64,000 nucleotides of DNA from assembly GCA_029260575.1 (NCBI GenBank), contig JAJDDB010000016.1, forward strand, positions 248,001 to 312,000, in the 5' to 3' direction. This DNA is from Phycisphaerales bacterium (GTDB taxonomy: Bacteria; Planctomycetota; Phycisphaerae; Phycisphaerales; SM1A02). The position numbers were made by a program, and so were the translations under genes. Position 1 is the stretch's first letter. The number at the start of each line of letters is the position of its first letter. Shown here piece by piece: positions 10,202 through 27,532 of the stretch. Below the pieces are notes generated by a model. It worked only from the letters and a program-made list of their open reading frames with translations. It made no database searches and was not told where the DNA came from.

Positions 10202-12154
10202 CTACCCCCAGTTGGCCAGCAATTCCAATAAGTCGAACACGTTCACAGCACAGTCAGGTTGGCCGCCGACTGCATCGGTAATGTCTGCCGGGCACGTCGG
10301 CGGGCATGGTGCCGGGCAATCGCCCCAGGCATCGAGCAAATCCAGTAGATCAAACACATCAACAGTTCCGCTTGCGTCAAGATCGCCACGCTTGGTTGTA
10401 ATGCGCAGGACAACGCCGGTGTTTTCGAACGGCGTGCCCGTTGCGTTGGCCATGACGTACAGCTCGCCATCAGCATCCTCACCGAAACCGAGTACGAGTA
10501 ACTGGAATCCCGCAGGATCGACGAACTGAAATTCGTTCATTGCGCTTGCACCATCCAGGAAGAACAGCCTGCTGAGAAACTCACCAAAGACATACTTGCC
10601 CTGCAGCGGCTCAATGCGCGAACCTCTATAGACGAATCCACCGAGCACGACGACACCTTCATCATGGTCGTACTGCGCGACCGGATCGACCATATCCGCA
10701 GGCACACCCGGTGAATCGGCGAACACAAACCCGGGGTCGCCGCCGTTCATGTCAAACAGGAACGAACCCTCTTTCACCGGCCAGCCGAGGTTGTCACCCT
10801 TATTGACAACATCAACTTCTTCAATGTCATTTTGGCCTGCATCCGCCAGCCAGAGATTTCCCGTTTTCGTATCAAACGAAAATCGAAACGGATTGCGCAG
10901 ACCGAACGCGTAGATTTCATCCACACCCGGGCCGCCGACAAACGGATTGTCAGCCGGGATACCGTACTGTCCGTTGGCAGAGTTGTTGCCCTGCGGATCA
11001 ATGCGGATCACAGTGCCGAGGATATTTGCGGTGTCCTGTCCGTTGCCAATGGCGACATGACCAGCCCCCTGATCGTCACCCGCGCCGCCATCACCAAGTG
11101 CGATGTACAGCAAACCATCCGGGCCGAAATTCATCGCCCCCGCGTTGTGATTGAATTGCGGCTGATCGATGCGCAGGATTTCTCGCGCGCTCTTCGTATT
11201 CACCACCGACTCCGGGCTGGCCGGCTTGGCAACCTGCCATTCGGTAATCACGGTCTGGTGATTTGCAGGCGTGCCGGCCGGCATCGTCGAGAAGTCCGCT
11301 TTGTTATCCACCGGATGCGATTCGTATGTATAGAGCAGCCCATTGTTCTGATAGTTCCGATGAAATGCCACCCCAAGAAGGCCGCGCTCATCAAATGTTC
11401 CCGGGCCGGCAATACCAAGCGCAATCAACCTGTTGCTGACATCCAGAAATACGCTTTTCGTGTTCGTGTCCAGGTCAATCGCCCACAGAATGCCGGGTTG
11501 ATCTGTCACAAACAATCTGCGGTTCGGATCGTCGGGCGCGCTGATGCCCCAGTTGGGTGCGGTAAGCCCTGACGCCACGACTTCAAGAGCAATGTGCACA
11601 TCACCCGCTGCGATCGGCCCGGGAATCGGATCGTCCAGCGGCGCCGGCCCGGCAGGCGGGGCAGCGCAATATGTGAAACTGTCCATAACGGTCCACCCCG
11701 AGACGCCGTTGTTCGACAAGGTAATCGACCCGATCAGAACATCGATCTTCGGGTCAATAGTGACGTTGACATTCTGATACACAGTCGTTGCGTTCACGGT
11801 CGTAATGACTGCGCCGCCCGTGTCAAAAACCGTCAGAACGCCGGCGTTGGAATTGAACTGATCGCGAATAAACAGATTGACACTCTCACCCGGCGATTCA
11901 AACGTAATCGTCCCGGTTACCCCCGCAGGAATCATCCACGCCCGACTGCCAGTGCGATATAAGCCTGGTATGCCGACTGTCTGCGCCCGACCGTTCAGAA
12001 AGGTCGCCGAATTCGGGCTCGTGCCGAGTGTGAAAACACCATCGACATCATTGAATTCAAAGCTCGTATTCACATCATTTGCAAATGCTGCACCGCACAG
12101 CGCTATTGCGAGAACTGTCATCGAAATCATCTTGTATGTATGGAATTGTTGCAT
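10202..12154 (-). CDS. Secreted PQQ-type sugar dehydrogenase with dockerin-like tail
   Basis: 650 residues. ATG 12154 follows GGAG and opens a cleavable signal peptide (MTVLAIALCGAAFAND). An N-terminal beta-rich domain (about 25-170) precedes a six-bladed propeller of the glucose/sorbosone dehydrogenase family (about 195-575), with NFGPDGLLYIALGDGG, AFGLRNPFRFSFD and DAGQNDIEEVDVV. Such enzymes oxidise sugars using PQQ. The C-terminus carries two Asp/Leu-rich repeats, GDLDASGTVDVFDLLDLLDA and CPADITDA...VNVFDLLELLANWG, resembling the Cys-containing dockerin-like tails found on many secreted Phycisphaerae proteins. These probably anchor or assemble the protein outside the cell. Substrate unknown. 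Confidence 0.88.
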   Translation of the reverse strand: MQQFHTYKMISMTVLAIALCGAAFANDVNTSFEFNDVDGVFTLGTSPNSATFLNGRAQTVGIPGLYRTGSRAWMIPAGVTGTITFESPGESVNLFIRDQFNSNAGVLTVFDTGGAVITTVNATTVYQNVNVTIDPKIDVLIGSITLSNNGVSGWTVMDSFTYCAAPPAGPAPLDDPIPGPIAAGDVHIALEVVASGLTAPNWGISAPDDPNRRLFVTDQPGILWAIDLDTNTKSVFLDVSNRLIALGIAGPGTFDERGLLGVAFHRNYQNNGLLYTYESHPVDNKADFSTMPAGTPANHQTVITEWQVAKPASPESVVNTKSAREILRIDQPQFNHNAGAMNFGPDGLLYIALGDGGAGDDQGAGHVAIGNGQDTANILGTVIRIDPQGNNSANGQYGIPADNPFVGGPGVDEIYAFGLRNPFRFSFDTKTGNLWLADAGQNDIEEVDVVNKGDNLGWPVKEGSFLFDMNGGDPGFVFADSPGVPADMVDPVAQYDHDEGVVVLGGFVYRGSRIEPLQGKYVFGEFLSRLFFLDGASAMNEFQFVDPAGFQLLVLGFGEDADGELYVMANATGTPFENTGVVLRITTKRGDLDASGTVDVFDLLDLLDAWGDCPAPCPPTCPADITDAVGGQPDCAVNVFDLLELLANWG

Positions 12155-17353: not shown

Positions 17354-20155
17354 TTACGATTCGTGACGCAGTGTTATGCGCACCTTCTTTGGGTCGAAGC
17401 CGTGTTCGTCGAAGAGCAGGACTTCGTTCATCGCTTTGGGTTTGAGCCAGGGCTCGGGAATGTACAGGCGTTTCTGTGGGCCGACGGCTGCGCCGGTTGC
17501 GGTGGCGGTAAAGTATCGGCCGAGGTTGTGGCCGTTGATGTAGGCCTGGCCCTTGCTCATGCCTGAAACATCCAGCCAGGCGGGCAAACTGCTTGCGGGC
17601 AGTTCAACTTTTGTCTTCCACCAGCACGGCATCCCGAGGCGGGCTTTCCCGTTATTAGGCGGATCGCTGAACGATGTCGCTTTGGGCGGTTCCCATTTGG
17701 CGAACGACCATGTCGCTTTTTCGGTGAGGTTGTCTGCACATTCAAAGATGTTGATCGCAGCGATTGCTTTTTTCAAGCTACTGCCCTGGCCGACATCGGG
17801 TGCGAAGCGCAGTTCGTTGTTGCCGCGCTTGAAAGCATCCATCGTTGCGGGGTCCAGCATGAGGTTGAGTGGCTGGTGGCCGTACACGCCTGCGTAGTAG
17901 TGAATCGGTACGTCGTTGAGCACGAAAGTTCCGCTGATCGGCAGGCTGGGCGCGTATACGAACACGGCTGTCTTCTTGAGGTGCTTGAACGCCCAGAGCG
18001 CCTGTTTGGGTTCGCTGAGTTGGCCGACGGCGCGCATCGCAATGTATTGGTGCAGGGAGAACGGATCGACGGGATCGGTGTCGATCATCTTGGGCTTGTT
18101 GGTGCGCAACTGTTTCAAGCCGTAGAGGTGGTCGAAGATCCCCTTGAACATTGCCAGATCGTTGCCGTCGAAATATCTACCGAGGTTGTCAACCAGCGCG
18201 ACCAGCAGGTGTTTGCCCTTGGTGAGGCTGAGTTCGAACGGCGCCGGGTCTGCGCCCGGGCCGCAGCCGGCGATGTGCTCGAGCGTGCCGTCCAGATACA
18301 GGTGCGTCCGATCAAGTGCGCTGGGAAGCGCGCATTGGTACTTGCGGCCGGCCGTGACGTTCATTTCGATGCGATACCAGCCGTAACCAACCGTCGCGCC
18401 GCAATTGGTCAGCGTTTGCGGGCCGTCGAGTGATGCATACCGTGGAAACGTGCCCTCAATCTGCGGGGTTGCTGGTGCACATTTCCAATTGTCCGGCGTT
18501 ATTGATTTGCTGCGCGCGTTGACGGCTGTTGCGGCAGCCTTCGAAAACTCCACCGGCTCGGCGACAGCGCCAGGGCGGATCACGAACGCTTTGGTTGTAC
18601 CCGCGCGTGGCAGCGGTTCTTCGTTTTCGTCAAGCCCGCCGACGCCGACGTACACCGAATCTTCCGCAAGGTAAGTGCTGTCAATCTGTTCGTCGTTGCA
18701 GATGACGATTGTCAGATCGCGCTGTTTGACGACCAGCGGTTCCGCGCCGCTGGGCACGGTCGCTTCGATCGGCGAGCCGTTTATCGACATCAACGCCGAC
18801 GTCTTGGCCGGCCCGTGGAATACGATGATTGATCGGCCGATCATGGCAAACGGACTGATGTTTGCGTATTCGAGATGCCCGGCCCCTGCGATATCGGCAT
18901 CAAAGAGGTACCACCGCACGGGTTGATCGCCAAAGTACACAGGCATGCGCAAGCCGTTGTCCAGCAGCAACGTGGTGGATTCTGTTTCACCATCGGAAAA
19001 TGCAAAGATCACTCTGCCGCGGGTGCCTCGCTGGGCCACGATCGAAACCGAAGGCGATCGTACTGCGCTGCGCGGGTTGTTCTTCTTGCTGCTGAGCGCG
19101 CGCGTGCCGAGTTCGACAACATCCTGCGCCACCGGTCGATGATCTGGATCGAGCTCCGCAAAGATGTGCGCAAACCGATTGGCAAACGTCACGAGGCGTT
19201 TCACGATGTCGTACTTTTCGCCGCGTTGACCAGCTTCGCCCAGCGGCGCATCGGGCGCGATCGCTGTCGTGGCCGGCCCGCCGCCGGGTCCGCTGTACTG
19301 GCCGCCAAGGAATTCAAAATTCGTCGCGCACAGGAACGGGTTTACGACAACCTGGCTACCTGCAGCAAGCGCTTCAGCCAGATGCCAGAGTGTTGCGATG
19401 GCTGAACGATCATCGCGCGACTTCTCGCCCCAGATGCTTGGCGCGGATGTTTCGAACGCACTGACCAGCAGCGGCTTCTCCGGATTGACGGTGCGCAGTT
19501 GCCGGAGATGTGACAACAGATCATCCCAGCCGCGCCAAGTGTCGATCGTGTCAGGAACTTCCTGCCACAGCTCGTTGGCATTGGTGATCGGCACAGCAAT
19601 GCCGCGCTCGCGCATATAGCGCAGCAGTTCGCCGTGGTACTTTGTCGCTTGTTCGGGGTTGGAACACAGCCAACGATGTTCGAGTTGGACCGCAATGATC
19701 GGCCCGCCTTGCGTTGCCTGCATCGGTGCAACTTCTGCCATGAGTTTGCGGATGTACCGTGCGACTTTCTCCATGAGTGCTTCGTTTGATTGACGAAAGG
19801 CGATGCCGTCTGCCGCGATAAGCCAGCCGGGGATGCCGCCGCCGTCATACCCTGAGCCGACAAACGGGCCGGGTCGCAGAATGCTTTTCATGCCGAGCGA
19901 GTTGCACAACTCCAGGAAGCCTTTGACGTCGGATTGGCCATCGAAGACGAACCGGCCGTCGCGCGGTTCGTGGATCATCCACGGGCATGCGGTGTCGATG
20001 GTGTTGAACCCTGCTTGTTTGGCGGCGAGGATCCGATCCGCCCAAAGCTCGGGCGGAATCCGGGCATACTCCACGTTCGCGCCCAAAACCCACATCCGCC
20101 TGCCGTCGAGAAGCAGGCACTGCTCGTTGTACGTCACATCCGCCATAAGATTCAT
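17354..20155 (-). CDS. GH35-like (beta-galactosidase fold) protein lacking usual catalytic residues
   Basis: 933 residues without a signal peptide, so probably cytoplasmic. The N-terminal TIM barrel follows family 35 glycoside hydrolases closely (RIPPELWADRILAAKQAGFN, ILRPGPFVGSGYDGGGIPGW, GGPIIAVQLEHRW), with beta-sandwich domains behind it. The glutamates expected in GH35 are absent. The acid/base position of QxENEYG reads QLEHRW (Arg161). The nucleophile position of SEFxxGWxDHWG reads SAFETSAPSIWG (Ala233). The CAEW of the substrate pocket reads GSGY. A shifted nucleophile (Glu235) cannot be excluded. It may be a binding or regulatory protein or use other residues. It is divergent from the TolC gene. 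Confidence 0.8.
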   Translation of the reverse strand: MNLMADVTYNEQCLLLDGRRMWVLGANVEYARIPPELWADRILAAKQAGFNTIDTACPWMIHEPRDGRFVFDGQSDVKGFLELCNSLGMKSILRPGPFVGSGYDGGGIPGWLIAADGIAFRQSNEALMEKVARYIRKLMAEVAPMQATQGGPIIAVQLEHRWLCSNPEQATKYHGELLRYMRERGIAVPITNANELWQEVPDTIDTWRGWDDLLSHLRQLRTVNPEKPLLVSAFETSAPSIWGEKSRDDRSAIATLWHLAEALAAGSQVVVNPFLCATNFEFLGGQYSGPGGGPATTAIAPDAPLGEAGQRGEKYDIVKRLVTFANRFAHIFAELDPDHRPVAQDVVELGTRALSSKKNNPRSAVRSPSVSIVAQRGTRGRVIFAFSDGETESTTLLLDNGLRMPVYFGDQPVRWYLFDADIAGAGHLEYANISPFAMIGRSIIVFHGPAKTSALMSINGSPIEATVPSGAEPLVVKQRDLTIVICNDEQIDSTYLAEDSVYVGVGGLDENEEPLPRAGTTKAFVIRPGAVAEPVEFSKAAATAVNARSKSITPDNWKCAPATPQIEGTFPRYASLDGPQTLTNCGATVGYGWYRIEMNVTAGRKYQCALPSALDRTHLYLDGTLEHIAGCGPGADPAPFELSLTKGKHLLVALVDNLGRYFDGNDLAMFKGIFDHLYGLKQLRTNKPKMIDTDPVDPFSLHQYIAMRAVGQLSEPKQALWAFKHLKKTAVFVYAPSLPISGTFVLNDVPIHYYAGVYGHQPLNLMLDPATMDAFKRGNNELRFAPDVGQGSSLKKAIAAINIFECADNLTEKATWSFAKWEPPKATSFSDPPNNGKARLGMPCWWKTKVELPASSLPAWLDVSGMSKGQAYINGHNLGRYFTATATGAAVGPQKRLYIPEPWLKPKAMNEVLLFDEHGFDPKKVRITLRHES

Positions 20156-20405
20156 CAGCCCTTCGCGCTGCCCCGGGGTGGCCGATCACCGACACCCAAG
20201 CCGTGGGACCGGCCAGCCAAAGCTGGTATCGTAGTCACTCTGGAATTGCCGTTCAGGTATCGACTCGGATTCAGCCGGCATGCAACATCGGCTGGCTCAT
20301 CTCGGTATCACTACACCGCCACATCGACTGAACCTGTCACTCCTACCCCTGCACAGAAATTTCCGCGCCGCGATCATGGCCGACACACACCGCGACACGA
20401 CACAC

Positions 20406-22265
20406 ATGTTGAAATCGCTGCCTGAAACCAGCCATCTTTTGCGCGCCGCAACAGGGTTCGGTCTGTGTATTACACTTCTGGCGTTATCAGCCTGTGATAA
20501 TTCGATGAGCCGCATCGATCGGGATGTCAATGCGCTGATGCAGCGAACAACTGCAGACATGGGCGGTGATGCAACAGCACCGACCGCGCAGCCTGCCCGA
20601 GAATCCGATGGCGCTGTCAGCCCTGCTGGTGATCCGAACCTTGATTACACATCCGAAGGGCTGCGCACGATTAATCCATCCGCGTCGGAGTTGAGGTATG
20701 ACCCCATCGAAGATGAAGCGGATGATGTCATCAGCCGGCTGGATACATACAGCGAGGTTGCAGATGATGCACTGCGCCTTGATCTTGATGATGCGCTTGC
20801 GTATGCGATCGCACACAGTCGGGAATATCAATTTGCTGAGGAAGAATATGTTCTGGCGGCGCTGCGCCTGCTGATCGAGCGCCACCGCTGGGGACCGCGA
20901 TTCTTCGATGATGTCACAGCAGATTTTGTCGGCGACGCAAATGACGGCCTATACGATTCCTCGGCTCGACTGGTCAATGAGTTTCGCATCACACAGCGCT
21001 TGCCGTATGGCGGCGAGGTTGCGGTGCGGGCCATTACCGCAGCGACAGAAGACCTGCACCAGCGCGTGGCAGGCGAAAACGTCCAGAATGCAGATGTCAT
21101 TCTCGAAGCGGACATCCCGCTGCTGCGCGGAGCCGGCTTTGTCGCACGTGAACCGCGCATCCAGGCGGAGCGCGATGTGATCTATGCCGCCCGCGAATTC
21201 GAACGTTTTCGCAGGCAGTTTCTGTTTGATATTTCGGTCGATTTTCTTGATCTCGGCGTGACCGTTCGAAGCATAGAAAACAACGTTCGGCAGGTTGAAT
21301 CGCTGCAGCAACTGCAGACGCGAGAGACGGCACTGTATAAGAGCGGCAGAAACACACGCTTCGAAGCTGCGCTCGCTGAAAACTCAACGTATGAGGCGAT
21401 CGACCGGCTGAACAATGCCCGCGAGAGGTATCGACTGTCGCTTGATCGATTCAAATTGCGCCTGGGTATGCCGATTGATCAGCCTGTTGTGATCATTCCG
21501 ACGCAGATTGAATTGACGGCTCCGGACACCACTGTCAATGAAGCAGTTCGGCGAAGCCTGCAGTACCGACTCGATCTGCAAACAAGGCGGGATCGCATGG
21601 ATGATTCCCAGCGCGCGCTTGCCAACGCGCGCAACGGTTTGCTGCCTGATCTGAACCTGACTGGTTCGGTGACGTTTCGCACTGATGAAGATAAGCAGCG
21701 TGCGGGTTTTGATATCGATCCGGAAGAGACGGACTTTCGAGCAGGCGTGACGCTAGGCTTGCCACTTGATCGGGAGATTGAACGGCTGAATGTGCGGCAG
21801 TCGCAGGTCAACCTCGAACGGTCGATTCGTGAGTATGAGCGATTCCGTGACAGCATCATGATTGATGTGCGCAGTGCAGTGCGCGTCATCGATCGGTCGC
21901 GCTTCAGTTTGGATATTCAGGAACGCAATATTGACATTGCTGAGCAGCGCAAGGCCAGTATCGAAGCTGACCCGGACGCTGCGACGGCTCGAGACTTTGC
22001 CGAGGCGGTGAATGATCTGCTGGACGCGCGGGATGCCCGCGATTTTGCCCGCAGGGATGTGGATGTTGCGATTCTCGGGTACCTGCTGGATTCCGGGCAG
22101 ATGCGTGTGAATGCAGCCGGCCAATTTGAGCCGCTTGATGGCATGACGATTCTGAGGCGCGATTTCGCTGATGATGATGAAACGGAAGCTTCCCCAGCCG
22201 ATATCAACAGCGATGTTCCCGCCACGCCCCAGCCGGGTGCAGACGGCCCAGGCAACGGCAACTAG
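20406..22265 (+). CDS. TolC-family outer-membrane efflux lipoprotein
   Basis: Outer-membrane channel component of a tripartite export system. A lipoprotein signal with lipobox LLALSAC is followed by an acidic linker and two helical repeats of the outer-membrane efflux family (LDDALAYAIAHSREYQFAEE near residue 120; TVNEAVRRSLQYRLDLQTRR and the second repeat later). Length fits the family. The start is uncertain: ATG 20406 puts the signal peptide nearest the N-terminus, but ATGs at 20376 and 20280 are in frame and none has a clear ribosome site. The next gene is an HlyD-type adaptor, the usual periplasmic partner. No inner-membrane pump is encoded in the window. Confidence 0.85.
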   Translation: MLKSLPETSHLLRAATGFGLCITLLALSACDNSMSRIDRDVNALMQRTTADMGGDATAPTAQPARESDGAVSPAGDPNLDYTSEGLRTINPSASELRYDPIEDEADDVISRLDTYSEVADDALRLDLDDALAYAIAHSREYQFAEEEYVLAALRLLIERHRWGPRFFDDVTADFVGDANDGLYDSSARLVNEFRITQRLPYGGEVAVRAITAATEDLHQRVAGENVQNADVILEADIPLLRGAGFVAREPRIQAERDVIYAAREFERFRRQFLFDISVDFLDLGVTVRSIENNVRQVESLQQLQTRETALYKSGRNTRFEAALAENSTYEAIDRLNNARERYRLSLDRFKLRLGMPIDQPVVIIPTQIELTAPDTTVNEAVRRSLQYRLDLQTRRDRMDDSQRALANARNGLLPDLNLTGSVTFRTDEDKQRAGFDIDPEETDFRAGVTLGLPLDREIERLNVRQSQVNLERSIREYERFRDSIMIDVRSAVRVIDRSRFSLDIQERNIDIAEQRKASIEADPDAATARDFAEAVNDLLDARDARDFARRDVDVAILGYLLDSGQMRVNAAGQFEPLDGMTILRRDFADDDETEASPADINSDVPATPQPGADGPGNGN

Positions 22266-22442
22266 GCCGCTGTTCATCTGGCCACATCGTTCAAACAGCG
22301 TTTGCACTGCGGAATCAGCGATTTTCACCTCGATCGGCGTGCCGGGACGCGCTAGCCTTGAGATGCTGATGCATAAATACGTCTGCGGCTTCGTTGGATG
22401 ACTGACTGGATATTTAATTCGCCCACCCGGGAGGAGCCCGAC

Positions 22443-24059
22443 TTGAAGTACCCAAACGCCCGAACAGCCGGCGTGCTGACCATTTTGCTAATTGTTACCG
22501 TCGCAGCGGTTCTCATTGGTATCGGTGCGGTGGTTGTGGGCGCAACGCGCGGCGCAACGGCCAGCCAGTCGGACATTTTTGCCGTTTCGCAAGGTGAATT
22601 CGATGTCACAGTTCCCGCAAGCGGTGAATTCTCAGCACTGAATCAGATCGAAATCAAGAACGATCTGGAAGTGCGCGCGGTCATTACCGAGATCGTTGAT
22701 GAAGGGATCATCGTTCGCAAGGGTGATGTGCTGTTCAAACTCAACGATGAGGACATGATCAACCGCGTCAAGGACATGCAGAATTCGGTGGATGAAGCGC
22801 AGAACCGCTTCGACACCGCCACCGCTGACTTGGAGATCATGATCAAGGAGCGCGAGTCGAAGCTTGCAGAAGCTGACGTTACGATTGAACTTGCAGAGTT
22901 GGCGATGAAGTCATGGGAAAAGGGCGACAGTGTCTCCCGTGAAAGCGATCTCAAGCTGGCAATCAAGACAGCACAAAAAAATTATGATCGTCTCGTCGAT
23001 CGATTCGAAGCATCGAAACGGTTGCTCGAGCAGGAGTTCATTAGTGAAGATGAGTATCTTCGAGATGAAATCGAACTGATAGAAGCTGACGCCAAGCTGA
23101 TTCAGGCGAATCTTGACCTCGAAGTGTATATGGAATACACGATCAAACAGGATCGCAAGAAGAAAGAGTCTGACCTGAAGCAGGCCAAGGACGAGCGCGA
23201 GCGCACCGAAGCGAGTTATAAAGCCCGCGTCGCCAGTGCCCGCAGCACCGTACAGAGCCGAAAGAACCAACTCGACAGCGACACCGAGCGCCTGGCAGAT
23301 GCCCGCGATCAACTCGAACGCTGCATCGTGTATGCACCATCCGATGGATTAGTCGTGTATGCATCAAGTATTGATCGCGGGGGGTGGCGCGATGATTCCA
23401 ACCCACCGCAGGTCGGCACGGAACTGTATCGCAATCAAACGGTGATCGTCCTTCCCGATACGTCGAAGATGGTTGCGGAAGTCAAGATCAATGAAGCTCT
23501 GAGCGGTCTCATTGAACCCGGCCAGCTGGCGACGATTCGTTCGGATGCCCAGCCGGATGATGTGCTGTCCGGTGAAGTACTCAGCATCGGCGTGTTGGCG
23601 GAATCGGGCGGGTGGCGCGATCCCAATCGGCGCGACTATACCGTTCGCATCCGACTCGATGGCGACAACGACAACGGCCTGAAGCCCTCGATGCGCTGCA
23701 AAGCCAACATCTATGTAGACAAGGTTGACGATGCGACATACGTGCCGGTGCAATCGGTCTTCCGCACCGGACCACTGGCCTATGTGTATGTTCCAGATGG
23801 TTCGGGTTACGCGCAGCGGGAAGTGGAACTCGGCAGGGCGTCGGAGTTGTATGTTGAGGTGCTCAACGGTGTGCAGCCGGGCGATGATGTGCTGACCCGC
23901 AAGCCCAAACCCGAACGCATCACCGTCAAACTCGAAGCCCCCGAGCAAAAGCAGCGCGGTCCCGGCAGCGGCCCGAAGAAAAATAACAGCTCCGCCCGCG
24001 TGGCAGCCAATGAGACGACCGAGGCCGAGATGAAACCCGGAGCCGAACCTGGTTCGTAA
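22443..24059 (+). CDS. HlyD-family periplasmic adaptor (membrane fusion protein)
   Basis: About 538 residues. One N-terminal membrane anchor (AGVLTILLIVTVAAVLIGIG) is followed by a lipoyl/barrel half (FDVTVPASGEFSALNQIEIK, IVRKGDVLFKLNDED), a long charged coiled coil (about 105-295), the returning lipoyl half (IVYAPSDGLVVYAS) and beta-barrel and membrane-proximal domains (YVPVQSVFRTGPLAYVYV). TTG 22443 is chosen because GGGAGGAG lies 6 bases upstream; ATG 22398 adds 15 residues and has no ribosome site. It lies 177 bases after the TolC gene. The two presumably form an export path with a transporter encoded elsewhere. Confidence 0.86.
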   Translation: MKYPNARTAGVLTILLIVTVAAVLIGIGAVVVGATRGATASQSDIFAVSQGEFDVTVPASGEFSALNQIEIKNDLEVRAVITEIVDEGIIVRKGDVLFKLNDEDMINRVKDMQNSVDEAQNRFDTATADLEIMIKERESKLAEADVTIELAELAMKSWEKGDSVSRESDLKLAIKTAQKNYDRLVDRFEASKRLLEQEFISEDEYLRDEIELIEADAKLIQANLDLEVYMEYTIKQDRKKKESDLKQAKDERERTEASYKARVASARSTVQSRKNQLDSDTERLADARDQLERCIVYAPSDGLVVYASSIDRGGWRDDSNPPQVGTELYRNQTVIVLPDTSKMVAEVKINEALSGLIEPGQLATIRSDAQPDDVLSGEVLSIGVLAESGGWRDPNRRDYTVRIRLDGDNDNGLKPSMRCKANIYVDKVDDATYVPVQSVFRTGPLAYVYVPDGSGYAQREVELGRASELYVEVLNGVQPGDDVLTRKPKPERITVKLEAPEQKQRGPGSGPKKNNSSARVAANETTEAEMKPGAEPGS

Positions 24060-24154: not shown

Positions 24155-24775
24155 CTACTTCTTCTTGCCGTTCTTGGTATCCGTTGGCAGATGTCTGAGC
24201 ACCGCATCGACGAGGCCGTACTCTTTCATCTCTTCGCTGCTGAACCACTTGTTGCGTTCGCAGTCCTCGGCGATCTTTTCAACCGTCTGGCCGGTGGAGT
24301 CGGAGTACAGTTTGTATCCGATTTCGCGCAAGCGCAGCATTTCGCGGGCTTCGATTTCAAGATCAGTTGCCTGACCTTCAAGCACGCCACTGAGTAGCGG
24401 CTGGTGCATGAGGTTTCGTGAGAAGGGCAGCGCGAAGCGTTTGCCTTTGGTACCGCAGCAGGCGATCAGCGAACCCATCGACGCTGCCTGGCCGATGATG
24501 TACGTCGACACTTGCGCGGGCACGAATCGCATAGTGTCGATGATGCCCATACCTGCGGTGACGGACCCGCCGGGGCTGTTGATGTACAAGTTGATATCGA
24601 GCTTGGGATCTTCGTTGGACAGGAACAGAATCTGTGCAATGACCAGATTCGCCAGTTCATCGTGGATTCCGCCGCCCAGAAAGATGATCCGGTCCTTGAG
24701 TAGGCGTGAATAGATGTCGTACGCCCGTTCACCTCGGCCGGTCTGTTCAATCACGATTGGAACGAGTGTGGACAT
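24155..24775 (-). CDS. clpP: ATP-dependent Clp protease proteolytic subunit
   Basis: 206-residue serine protease subunit that forms tetradecameric barrels with a Clp ATPase. The catalytic triad is visible: Ser in [10 protein letters not shown], His in RNLMHQPL and Asp in the AEDCERNKW region. [16 protein letters not shown] and the C-terminal EYGLVDAVL are standard. It follows a second clpP (24833) on the same strand with a 57-base gap, so the two are probably co-expressed and may form a hetero-oligomer. No clpX or clpA is present in the window. Confidence 0.95.
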
Positions 24776-24832
24776 GTATCTGGCAATCCGCTGTTAGCTT
24801 TGTGATCAGGGAAAACGAAACGGCGAACCGTG

Positions 24833-25507
24833 TTAGCTTTTCTTGGTTTTCTGCTTGTCAGCGTTCGGCATGAACACTTCATCGACAAGCCCGTAGTCTT
24901 TGGCCTGCTGAGCATCGAAATACTTGTCGCGCTCGCCATCGTCTGCCACCTGTTTTACATCCTGGCCGGTGTGATTGGCGATGATCTCGTTGAGCGTCTG
25001 TTTGGCCTTGATGATCTGCTCGGCCTGTATCTGAATGTCGGATGTCTGGCCGGTCACCCCGCCGTAGGGCTGGTGAATCATGACCTTGGCGTGCGGGAGA
25101 ATGTGTCTTTTGCCCGGATGGCCAGCACACAGCAGCACCGACCCGCCGGAGTATGCCCGGCCGATGCAGAATGTCGCCACATCGGAGCTGATGAACTGCA
25201 TCGTGTCGTAGATCGCCAGCGTGTCGTCGACCGATCCGCCGGGGCTGTTGATATAGAGGTTGATGTCCTGGCCTCGCTTCTGATCTTCGAGGTACAGCAT
25301 CTGCATCATCACGCGGGCAGCGGATGTATAATTGATCTCGCCGATCAGGAAGACAACGCGGTTCTCCAGCAGCAATTCGTCAATCGACATCTCGCGGGTG
25401 CGCTGGTACTGCACTGCTGCCTGCGGGTTGGGCAGCGGAGGGGCGGTCATGGAGTGGCCGATCGGGTTCGGCAGTTGCATCGGCGGCCACGGTCGCGTCT
25501 GGTCCAT
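24833..25507 (-). CDS. clpP: ATP-dependent Clp protease proteolytic subunit, divergent paralogue
   Basis: About 224 residues, with an N-terminal extension rich in Pro and Gln (DQTRPWPPMQLPNP). The triad is preserved: Ser in GRAYSGGSVLL, where most ClpPs have GQAASMGA; His in KVMIHQPYGG; Asp in ADDGERDKYF. The altered residues around the nucleophile suggest different specificity or activation. ATG 25507 is chosen for the AGGAG 8 bases upstream; ATG 25555 is less likely. It forms a tandem with the canonical clpP downstream. Confidence 0.93.
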   Translation of the reverse strand: MDQTRPWPPMQLPNPIGHSMTAPPLPNPQAAVQYQRTREMSIDELLLENRVVFLIGEINYTSAARVMMQMLYLEDQKRGQDINLYINSPGGSVDDTLAIYDTMQFISSDVATFCIGRAYSGGSVLLCAGHPGKRHILPHAKVMIHQPYGGVTGQTSDIQIQAEQIIKAKQTLNEIIANHTGQDVKQVADDGERDKYFDAQQAKDYGLVDEVFMPNADKQKTKKS

Positions 25508-25849
25508 CAGTCCGGCTCCTGCGGGCGAAAGGTCGGTGCGGAAACTCCGCAACAATCAGCGCTGTGATTGCTGCTGCCGCATCATAGGCACAGCCCTACC
25601 TTCGGCAAGCGGGCCGCCCAGCGTAACTGTAACCGCCTCACATGTAGCGCTTTCCACACGGCGAAAAGGGCTTGCCACAGAGCCGCAGAGTGCGCAGCGA
25701 AGATCGATTGACTGGATTTGATTGATGTCGGGTTGCTGTGGATGCACGTGGCATGAAAAATGCGCAGTTGTTGCGCGACGATGGCACCGTCGGGTCTTGC
25801 ATCAATCCTGCGACCTCATCGACCTTAGCGCCTTTGCGGTGAAATCACT
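25508..25849. other. Intergenic region between clpP pair and histidine kinase
   Basis: About 340 bases between genes on the same strand. It should contain the clpP promoter, since the ribosome site of clpP is at its left end. No clear heat-shock-type promoter, inverted repeat or small gene was recognised. Confidence 0.45.
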
Positions 25850-27532
25850 TCAGAACTCAACATCAAGCTCGCCGGGCGACATCGGCCGGGGCTGATGCGT
25901 TTTGCCCGCATCAAAGATCTTCTGGTCGGCAGGCACAATGATCCGAATTGTCGTACCGCTACCGTGGTCGCCTTCAACCAGTTCGATCGAACCGCGATGC
26001 TCGCGCACGATTTTTCGTGTGACTGCCAGGCCGAGTCCTGTGCCACGCTGGCCCTTGGTTGATACGAACGGTTCGAAGACTGTCGAACGCACCTGTTCCG
26101 CAATGCCGGGGCCGTTATCCGAAACGTCCACGATTGCCTGCTGTTTGGCTTCATCGAAGTGCGTGCGCACGGTCACGATGCCGGTCTTGCTCGGGGCTGC
26201 TTCCACCGCGTTGCTCAAGACGTTCATCAGCGCTTGATGGATTGCGGTCGTGTCCATCGGAATCGGCGGCAACGTCTCTTCAAGTTCCATGATCAGCACC
26301 GAGCGTTTGCGCTCACACATTGGTCGAACCAGTTCTGCTGCGTCTGTGATCAGCGCGTTGAGCGATGATAATTCCAGTTCAAGAGCTGACGGTTTGGAGA
26401 ACGTCAGCATGTTGAGTGTCAGCGACAGAATGCGATCGAGATTGCGCGAGAGGATTGCCCAGCCTTCGCTTGCAAGTTCCAGATCACCACGATTGATAGC
26501 AAGTTCCACAGCATCAGCACCGCCACGCAACCCCTGCAGAATGTTCTTTATGGAATGGCTGACTGATGCGACCGTCTCGCCGACCGCTGCGAGCCGTTCG
26601 GTTTGAACACGGCGAGCGACGAGTTCCAGATTGCGAAGTGCTAAACCAGTATGTTGTCCAATCGCGCTAAGCAAGCGCAATTGTGATTCTGTGAACGTGA
26701 AGTTCGCCAATTGACTGTCGATATGAATCACGCCAAACACGTTGGGGCCGGCGGTGATCGGAACGCAAAGAGCAGAGCGTATGCCGTAATCACGCACAGA
26801 ATCGCCGGCCTGGAATCGGCTGTCGTTCATTGCGTTGGTCGAGAGAGTGCCGGCGTTCTTGTTGAGCGTGTGCTGAATGATTGTGCGGCTGACCGGGATG
26901 CGGCCCTCATCGATTGTGCGCGGTTTTTCCCGATACCGCACAACGGCCGGGTCCGGTTGAGCTTCCGCGGAATGCATCAACAACACAAACCCGCGATCGG
27001 GGCGGAACTGTTCAAAGACCAGGTCCATCATCCTGTGCAGCAACTCATCTGCTTGCTGTGCGCCGCTGGTGAGGGCGGTGAGTTGATAAATCACTCGAAG
27101 GTGATCCGCAGCAGCGCTTGCGGGGTCAGGCGAAGCAAGCACCATCGATTCTGCGCTGGCGTCCGTCACATGCTCAACTGTGACATCGAACGCGTCCGGC
27201 GGAAGCAGGCGCACCATGCTGGAGTCACTGCGCGATCGGTCCGGCGGGGCTGCAAACGACAACAATGTTGAGCCGCAGCGAATCTGATCGCCGGGCGAGA
27301 GTACGACAAGTTCAGTGATGCGCTTGCCGTTGACGAACGTGCCGTTGGCTGAATCGAGATCGCGCAGATACCACTTGCCCTCATCTGGGGTCAGTTCAGC
27401 ATGACGACGGCTGACGGTGCTGTCGGTGATCGGCAGCGCCTCGCTCGACCGGCCGATGAGCTGCGGCTCATTGGTCGGCAGCTCGAACTTCTGGCCGCGA
27501 TCCGGTCCCTGGATGACATGCAGCAGCAGCAC
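25850..27532 (-). CDS. FHA-GAF-histidine kinase
   Basis: 560 residues, no membrane segment. An N-terminal FHA domain for phosphothreonine recognition (GRSSEALPITDSTVSRRHAE, then DLDSANGTFVNGKRI) is followed by a GAF domain (about 145-300; SALCVPITAGPNVFGVIHID), a HisKA-type helix pair with the phosphoacceptor in SVSHSIKNILQGL (His near 327) and a HATPase_c domain (DVSDNGPGIAEQ, GTGLGLAVTRKIVREHRG). GTG 27532 has GAGG before it. FHA at the front of a histidine kinase suggests crosstalk with Ser/Thr phosphorylation. No response regulator is adjacent. It is divergent from holA. Confidence 0.9.
   Translation of the reverse strand: MLLLHVIQGPDRGQKFELPTNEPQLIGRSSEALPITDSTVSRRHAELTPDEGKWYLRDLDSANGTFVNGKRITELVVLSPGDQIRCGSTLLSFAAPPDRSRSDSSMVRLLPPDAFDVTVEHVTDASAESMVLASPDPASAAADHLRVIYQLTALTSGAQQADELLHRMMDLVFEQFRPDRGFVLLMHSAEAQPDPAVVRYREKPRTIDEGRIPVSRTIIQHTLNKNAGTLSTNAMNDSRFQAGDSVRDYGIRSALCVPITAGPNVFGVIHIDSQLANFTFTESQLRLLSAIGQHTGLALRNLELVARRVQTERLAAVGETVASVSHSIKNILQGLRGGADAVELAINRGDLELASEGWAILSRNLDRILSLTLNMLTFSKPSALELELSSLNALITDAAELVRPMCERKRSVLIMELEETLPPIPMDTTAIHQALMNVLSNAVEAAPSKTGIVTVRTHFDEAKQQAIVDVSDNGPGIAEQVRSTVFEPFVSTKGQRGTGLGLAVTRKIVREHRGSIELVEGDHGSGTTIRIIVPADQKIFDAGKTHQPRPMSPGELDVEF

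What the first reader, a model, noticed from the sequence alone, without database searches (positions are those of the whole stretch)
17354..20155. GH35-fold protein with the usual catalytic glutamates replaced
The barrel aligns well with family 35 beta-galactosidases, but three active-site spots differ. QxENEYG reads QLEHRW, so the acid/base Glu becomes Arg161. SEFxxGWxDHWG reads SAFETSAPSIWG, so the nucleophile Glu becomes Ala233. CAEW reads GSGY. The scaffold is intact over 933 residues with no frameshift, so selection appears to have kept the protein. It may be a sugar-binding or regulatory pseudoenzyme, or a new hydrolase using shifted residues such as Glu235 or Glu159.
Basis: partly seen in the sequence, partly recalled or inferred. 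Interest (0 to 1): 0.72.

Follow-up and report, generated by a model that had tools for sequence, protein, structure and literature searches.

The report
Order-wide GH35 pseudo-galactosidase, dismantled active site
This is a large protein with the fold of a sugar-cutting enzyme (family 35 beta-galactosidase) that has lost both cutting residues and the sugar-holding pocket around them; most members of one bacterial order keep it as a full-length, well-preserved gene, so it probably now does a non-cutting job that nobody has described.

Summary
The 933-aa minus-strand ORF is a clear GH35 homologue (Pfam 198 bits), with R161 at the acid/base position, A233 at the nucleophile and GSG in place of CAE. 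It is not a one-off. Full-length orthologues, normally one per genome, occur in 44 of 61 sampled relatives and 50 of 65 genomes of the order (Planctomycetota). Among 58 altered sequences, 44 lack both catalytic Glu and only 2 keep both. The wider galactose (-1) subsite is gone too: Tyr83, Cys127 and Asn187 (human GLB1 numbering) are retained by 0%, against 80-100% in intact GH35s. The rest of the barrel is mostly conserved. dN/dS is 0.04-0.16, the same as in catalytically intact relatives, so this is not decay. Three members of the same order, the relatives checked outside the class and most of the related f15 clade keep an intact site. Residues fixed in this order (W162, W197, W207, R218-Q219) are shared with the intact sisters and outlived catalysis. 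E235 is not conserved, which argues against a shifted nucleophile. Best reading: a cytosolic GH35-derived pseudoglycosidase, probably ligand-binding; its ligand is unknown. New variant of a known kind.

The parts
17354..20155 (-). GH35-derived pseudoglycosidase, 933 aa, no signal peptide apparent
   Evidence: dN/dS of orthologue pairs
19187..20116 (-). GH35 barrel domain (residues 14-323)
   Evidence: Pfam PF01301 E 3.8e-58; PDB profile hits E 1e-97; low-confidence model matches GH35 structures first
19988..19990 (-). Ala56, equivalent to galactose-binding Tyr83 of human GLB1
   Evidence: Tyr in 26/30 intact GH35s, 0/58 altered orthologues
19850..19858 (-). G100-S101-G102, equivalent to Cys127-Ala128-Glu129
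19673..19681 (-). E159-H160-R161, equivalent to Glu186-Asn187-Glu188 (acid/base is R161 here)
19457..19459 (-). Ala233, equivalent to nucleophile Glu268
19259..19261 (-). Ile299, in place of the SYD tyrosine of the sugar pocket
   Evidence: Tyr 97% in intact, 2% in altered
19670..19672 (-). Trp162, fixed in the order (57/58 and 3/3 intact sisters)
19565..19567 (-). Trp197, aromatic fixed in the order (51/58 Trp, rest Tyr or Phe)
19535..19537 (-). Trp207, invariant 58/58 and in 3/3 intact sisters
19499..19504 (-). R218-Q219, invariant 58/58 and in 3/3 intact sisters
18422..19138 (-). extra domain (residues 340-578) absent from short GH35s, no PDB match
18125..18421 (-). weak match to BetaGal_ABD_1 (residues 579-677), below cut-off
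   Evidence: 15.9 bits against cut-off 27; PDB alignment
17630..18130 (-). second extra domain (residues 676-842), weak similarity to a beta-galactosidase/GH2 accessory domain
   Evidence: 6s6z E 5e-4
17435..17629 (-). BetaGal_gal-bd domain (residues 843-907)
   Evidence: E 5.7e-19
20280..22265 (+). divergent neighbour: TolC-type outer membrane protein, conserved in synteny in families f1, f2, f3, f6
22398..24059 (+). HlyD-type periplasmic adaptor following the TolC gene

Best explanation
A GH35-derived pseudoglycosidase: a cytosolic, normally single-copy, ~930-residue protein inherited vertically through one planctomycete order from a long GH35 enzyme. Shown from sequence: the retaining double-displacement machinery and the -1 galactose subsite have been dismantled while the barrel, the accessory domains and a set of lineage-specific residues stay under strong purifying selection. 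Inferred: it cannot act as a retaining glycosidase and now works by binding, with the remodelled aromatic cleft (W59, W162, W197, W207, plus E159/H160/C164) holding a ligand or partner other than a terminal galactoside. The ligand, and whether binding regulates something or serves as a scaffold, is unknown.
For: 44 of 58 altered orthologues lack both catalytic Glu, 26 of 58 have no carboxylate at either position, and only 2 keep both Glu. Six -1 subsite positions that are 80-100% conserved in intact GH35s fall to 0-19% identity, while 62 of 82 other conserved barrel positions are kept (Fisher p 4e-4, descriptive). Some f1 members have lost the nucleophile segment altogether. dN/dS is 0.035-0.16 across altered orthologue pairs against 0.10-0.17 in intact ones. 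Orthologues occur in 44/61 relatives and 50/65 genomes of the order. Parsimony needs at least 10 changes at position 161 and 8 at 233. W207, R218 and Q219 are invariant in all 58 and in the 3 intact sisters. Head-to-head synteny with a TolC gene supports vertical orthology.
Against: No activity or binding data. Some members keep one or both Glu (L019, L082 keep both; several f4 have E161 plus D233), so the clade may be mixed. Structure predictions were poor (pLDDT 33 and 46), so pocket geometry was not checked. Ligand binding is inferred only from conserved aromatics. Placing the new Trp residues in the cleft rests on sequence alignment alone, and around W207 that alignment is ambiguous.
Confidence: 0.66

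Rival explanations
1. Retooled enzyme: the barrel catalyses a different reaction with new residues such as E159, H160, C164, D104.
For: E159 is invariant, C164 is 54/58, H160 is 44/58 and D104 is 53/58 in the altered clade; strong purifying selection.
Against: E159 and D/E104 are equally typical of ordinary GH35s; H160 is replaced by S, Q, D, F or A and others in 14 of 58; no newly fixed carboxylate pair appears in the barrel.
Confidence: 0.15
2. Still a glycosidase, with E235 or a D/E at nearby positions acting as shifted nucleophile.
For: Window has E235 two residues after the nucleophile site; D occurs at 233 in 22/58 orthologues.
Against: E235 is present in only 7/58; the window has Ala at 233, and the acid/base and sugar-contact residues are gone too.
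Confidence: 0.06
3. Relaxed or decaying gene on the way to loss.
For: Absent from 15 of 65 order genomes, including many with 2.0-2.8 Mb assemblies; catalytic positions vary freely.
Against: Full-length ORFs nearly everywhere; dN/dS 0.035-0.16, including the pair L122/L042 with an eroded nucleophile segment, 0.098.
Confidence: 0.05
4. Non-catalytic partner of the adjacent TolC/HlyD export pair (for example binding an exported glycoconjugate).
For: Divergent TolC/HlyD genes beside it in most f1, f2, f3 and f6 loci, including intact-site members L035 and L040.
Against: TolC/HlyD occur in many genomes without the GH35-like gene; f5 genomes keep the GH35-like gene without a close TolC homologue, and in f4 the pair lies elsewhere.
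Confidence: 0.08

Closest known systems
GH35 beta-galactosidases (human GLB1 3thc, B. thetaiotaomicron 3d3a, B. circulans BgaC 4mad)
   Same: barrel sequence and architecture ending in the BetaGal galactose-binding-like domain
   Different: both catalytic Glu and the -1 subsite residues are replaced; two extra domains of about 240 and 165 residues
IaSGT, beta-1,2-glucosyltransferase of Ignavibacterium album, GH35 (PMC8861115)
   Same: cytosolic GH35 member without signal peptide and with non-galactosidase function
   Different: IaSGT keeps nucleophile E343, acid/base E176, Y52, E102, N175 and Y378 and needs both Glu; the window lacks the equivalents
Long GH35s of related planctomycete families f15/f25/f58 (L097-L116, L141-L142)
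   Same: about 880-990 aa co-linear architecture, full-length homology
   Different: most keep ENEY and the nucleophile Glu; lack W162/W207/R218-Q219 as a set
Pseudoglycosidases: klotho (GH1-like), YKL-39 (GH18-like), CyRPA (GH33-like) (review PMC7828330)
   Same: glycosidase fold without catalytic activity, with a binding role
   Different: from other GH families; here derived from GH35, cytosolic in bacteria, and the classical sugar subsite itself is erased

Membership tests
GH35 (sequence family) | match to GH35 profile over the whole barrel | tested here: met
   PF01301 198 bits against cut-off 27, profile positions 2-317 of 319
GH35 (sequence family) | acid/base and nucleophile glutamates | tested here: not met
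   R161 and A233
GH35 (sequence family) | -1 subsite residues (Tyr83, Cys127, Glu129, Asn187, SYD Tyr in GLB1 terms) | tested here: not met
   A56, G100, G102, H160, I299; residue roles from PMC8861115 and own knowledge of GLB1
GH35 (sequence family) | hydrolytic or transglycosylating activity | not testable with these tools
   needs recombinant protein
GH35 fold | predicted structure superposes on GH35 crystal structure | tested here: inconclusive
   model pLDDT 46; Foldseek nevertheless ranks GH35 structures first, 3d3a E 1.9e-11, TMq 0.62
Pseudoglycosidase | homology to a glycosidase with loss of catalytic residues | tested here: met
Pseudoglycosidase | maintained by purifying selection | tested here: met
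   dN/dS 0.035-0.16 in altered orthologue pairs
Pseudoglycosidase | binds a glycan or partner | not testable with these tools
   no binding data

The most novel reading that the evidence does not exclude
The remodelled GH35 barrel has acquired a new catalytic chemistry or a new conserved cellular role in the cytosol of a whole planctomycete order, with E159/H160/C164 and the Trp cluster forming a functional centre that replaced the galactosidase site.
Probability: 0.15. Interest if true: 0.75.

Novelty: new variant of a known kind. Interest (0 to 1): 0.5.

Why it matters
I found no paper on GH35 pseudoenzymes in the held open-access library. This gives an order-wide, normally single-copy pseudoglycosidase with intact sisters in the same order, so the route from enzyme to non-enzyme can be followed step by step. 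Automated pipelines would call these genes beta-galactosidase from their Pfam score; in most of this order that label, and any lactose or galactan metabolism inferred from it, is probably wrong.

Tried and rejected
AlphaFold of the full protein with two sequences failed (pLDDT 33), and the barrel with six sequences was poor (pLDDT 46). A functional link to TolC/HlyD was tested by co-occurrence and not upheld. E235 as replacement nucleophile was rejected by conservation. Gene decay was rejected by dN/dS. One against several losses: the free tree nests altered f5 and f6 members with intact ones, but a single altered clade is not rejected (p-AU 0.53), so the number of origins is open. Viral-contig scans gave only ordinary short GH35s. 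The first extra domain has no PDB match. Literature searches for GH35 pseudoenzymes gave nothing relevant.

Full report
The observation. The finding sits on the minus strand: an uninterrupted 933-codon frame from 20155 down to 17354. Pfam scores the barrel at 198 bits (cut-off 27, residues 14-323) and the C-terminal BetaGal_gal-bd domain at 68.5 bits. Its nearest solved relatives are GH35 beta-galactosidases. The window's genome (4.1 Mb, 41 contigs) has no other GH35.

It is an orthologous family, not one odd gene. Searching 61 relatives found a homologue in 44, normally a single full-length copy. A profile of 26 members found it in 50 of 65 genomes of the order in a class-wide sample. One hit lies in a named record, a Planctomycetota MAG. 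Related long GH35s occur in families f15 and f25 of the class and in a few genomes elsewhere in the phylum.

What happened to the active site. I aligned about 100 sequences and compared 58 altered orthologues with 30 intact GH35s. In the altered set position 161 is G, E, A, R, Q, H and others; position 233 is D, A, E, L, S, I and others. Forty-four of 58 have Glu at neither position, 26 have no carboxylate at either, and only two (L019, L082) have Glu at both. The loss reaches the whole -1 sugar subsite: the equivalents of Tyr83, Cys127 and Asn187 are retained in none and the SYD tyrosine in 2%, although they are 80-100% conserved in the intact set. Of the other conserved barrel positions 62 of 82 are kept (Fisher p 4e-4; the intact and altered sets were sorted partly by these same sites, so the p value is descriptive). 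Some f1 members have lost the nucleophile segment altogether.

When it happened. The six relatives checked outside the class and most f15/f25 members keep the site. Within the order three members (L024, L035, L040) are intact. These three already share W162, R179, E183, W197, W207, R218, Q219 and W415 with the altered clade, so those residues were fixed while the protein was still an enzyme and were then retained after catalysis was given up. Parsimony on the tree needs at least 10 changes at position 161 and 8 at 233, so both sites have been free to vary repeatedly. The tree places intact and altered members together in f5 and f6, but one single altered clade is not rejected.

Selection. dN/dS by Nei-Gojobori is 0.035-0.16 in twelve pairs of altered orthologues and 0.10-0.17 in three intact pairs. 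Purifying selection is as strong on the altered proteins as on the intact ones. (Some of the altered pairs, in f4, keep Glu at 161 with Asp or Glu at 233; the f2 and f1 pairs do not, and give 0.085-0.16.)

Surroundings. In families f1, f2, f3 and f6 the gene stands head to head with a TolC-type gene, usually followed by a HlyD-type adaptor, including next to the intact L035 and L040. This supports orthology. It does not show a functional partnership: TolC/HlyD persist in genomes without the GH35-like gene, and f5 has the GH35-like gene without a close TolC homologue. No signal peptide is visible and the orthologues start directly with the barrel, so a cytosolic location is likely (inference).

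Structure. Two AlphaFold jobs gave low confidence. The barrel model still ranks GH35 structures first in Foldseek (3d3a, E 1.9e-11, TMq 0.62). This agrees with the sequence result but cannot settle pocket geometry.

Mechanism. In GH35 both glutamates are needed even for transferase activity; in IaSGT the acid/base and nucleophile Gln mutants show under 0.4% and 0.1% of wild-type activity (PMC8861115). With R161 and A233 and no conserved substitute, retaining glycosidase chemistry is very unlikely. E235 is present in only 7 of 58 and E159 is ordinary for GH35. The best-supported reading is a pseudoglycosidase that works by binding. The conserved tryptophans suggest a remodelled cleft, but this is inference. 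Precedents exist in other families (klotho, YKL-39, CyRPA; PMC7828330). I found no report for GH35 in the held papers.

Noticed in passing
20280-24059: TolC-type and HlyD-type genes stand together without an adjacent inner-membrane transporter; some relatives carry two or three HlyD copies in a row (G024, G036).
   Followed up: partly
L101 and L115 (family f15): Two members of the otherwise intact long GH35 clade also show active-site changes (L101 NENQY with Asp at the nucleophile position; L115 ENEY kept but the nucleophile Glu lost), hinting at separate losses.
   Followed up: partly
L119, L120, L121 (genus g55): Extremely divergent copies of the family at the same TolC-linked locus, with the nucleophile strand motif missing.
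   Followed up: partly
10202-12154: Glucose/sorbosone dehydrogenase-like protein with a C-terminal duplicated dockerin-like DLDASGTVDVFDLLDLL motif.
   Followed up: no
24155-25555: Two different ClpP-like proteases in tandem on the minus strand (by eye, not searched).
   Followed up: no
25850-27532: FHA-GAF-histidine kinase fusion (Pfam).
   Followed up: no
17630-18130: Second extra domain (residues 676-842) shows weak similarity to an accessory domain of GH2 and archaeal GH35 beta-galactosidases (E 5e-4).
   Followed up: partly
L137-L140: Ordinary short GH35 genes with intact ENEY on contigs catalogued as viral.
   Followed up: no
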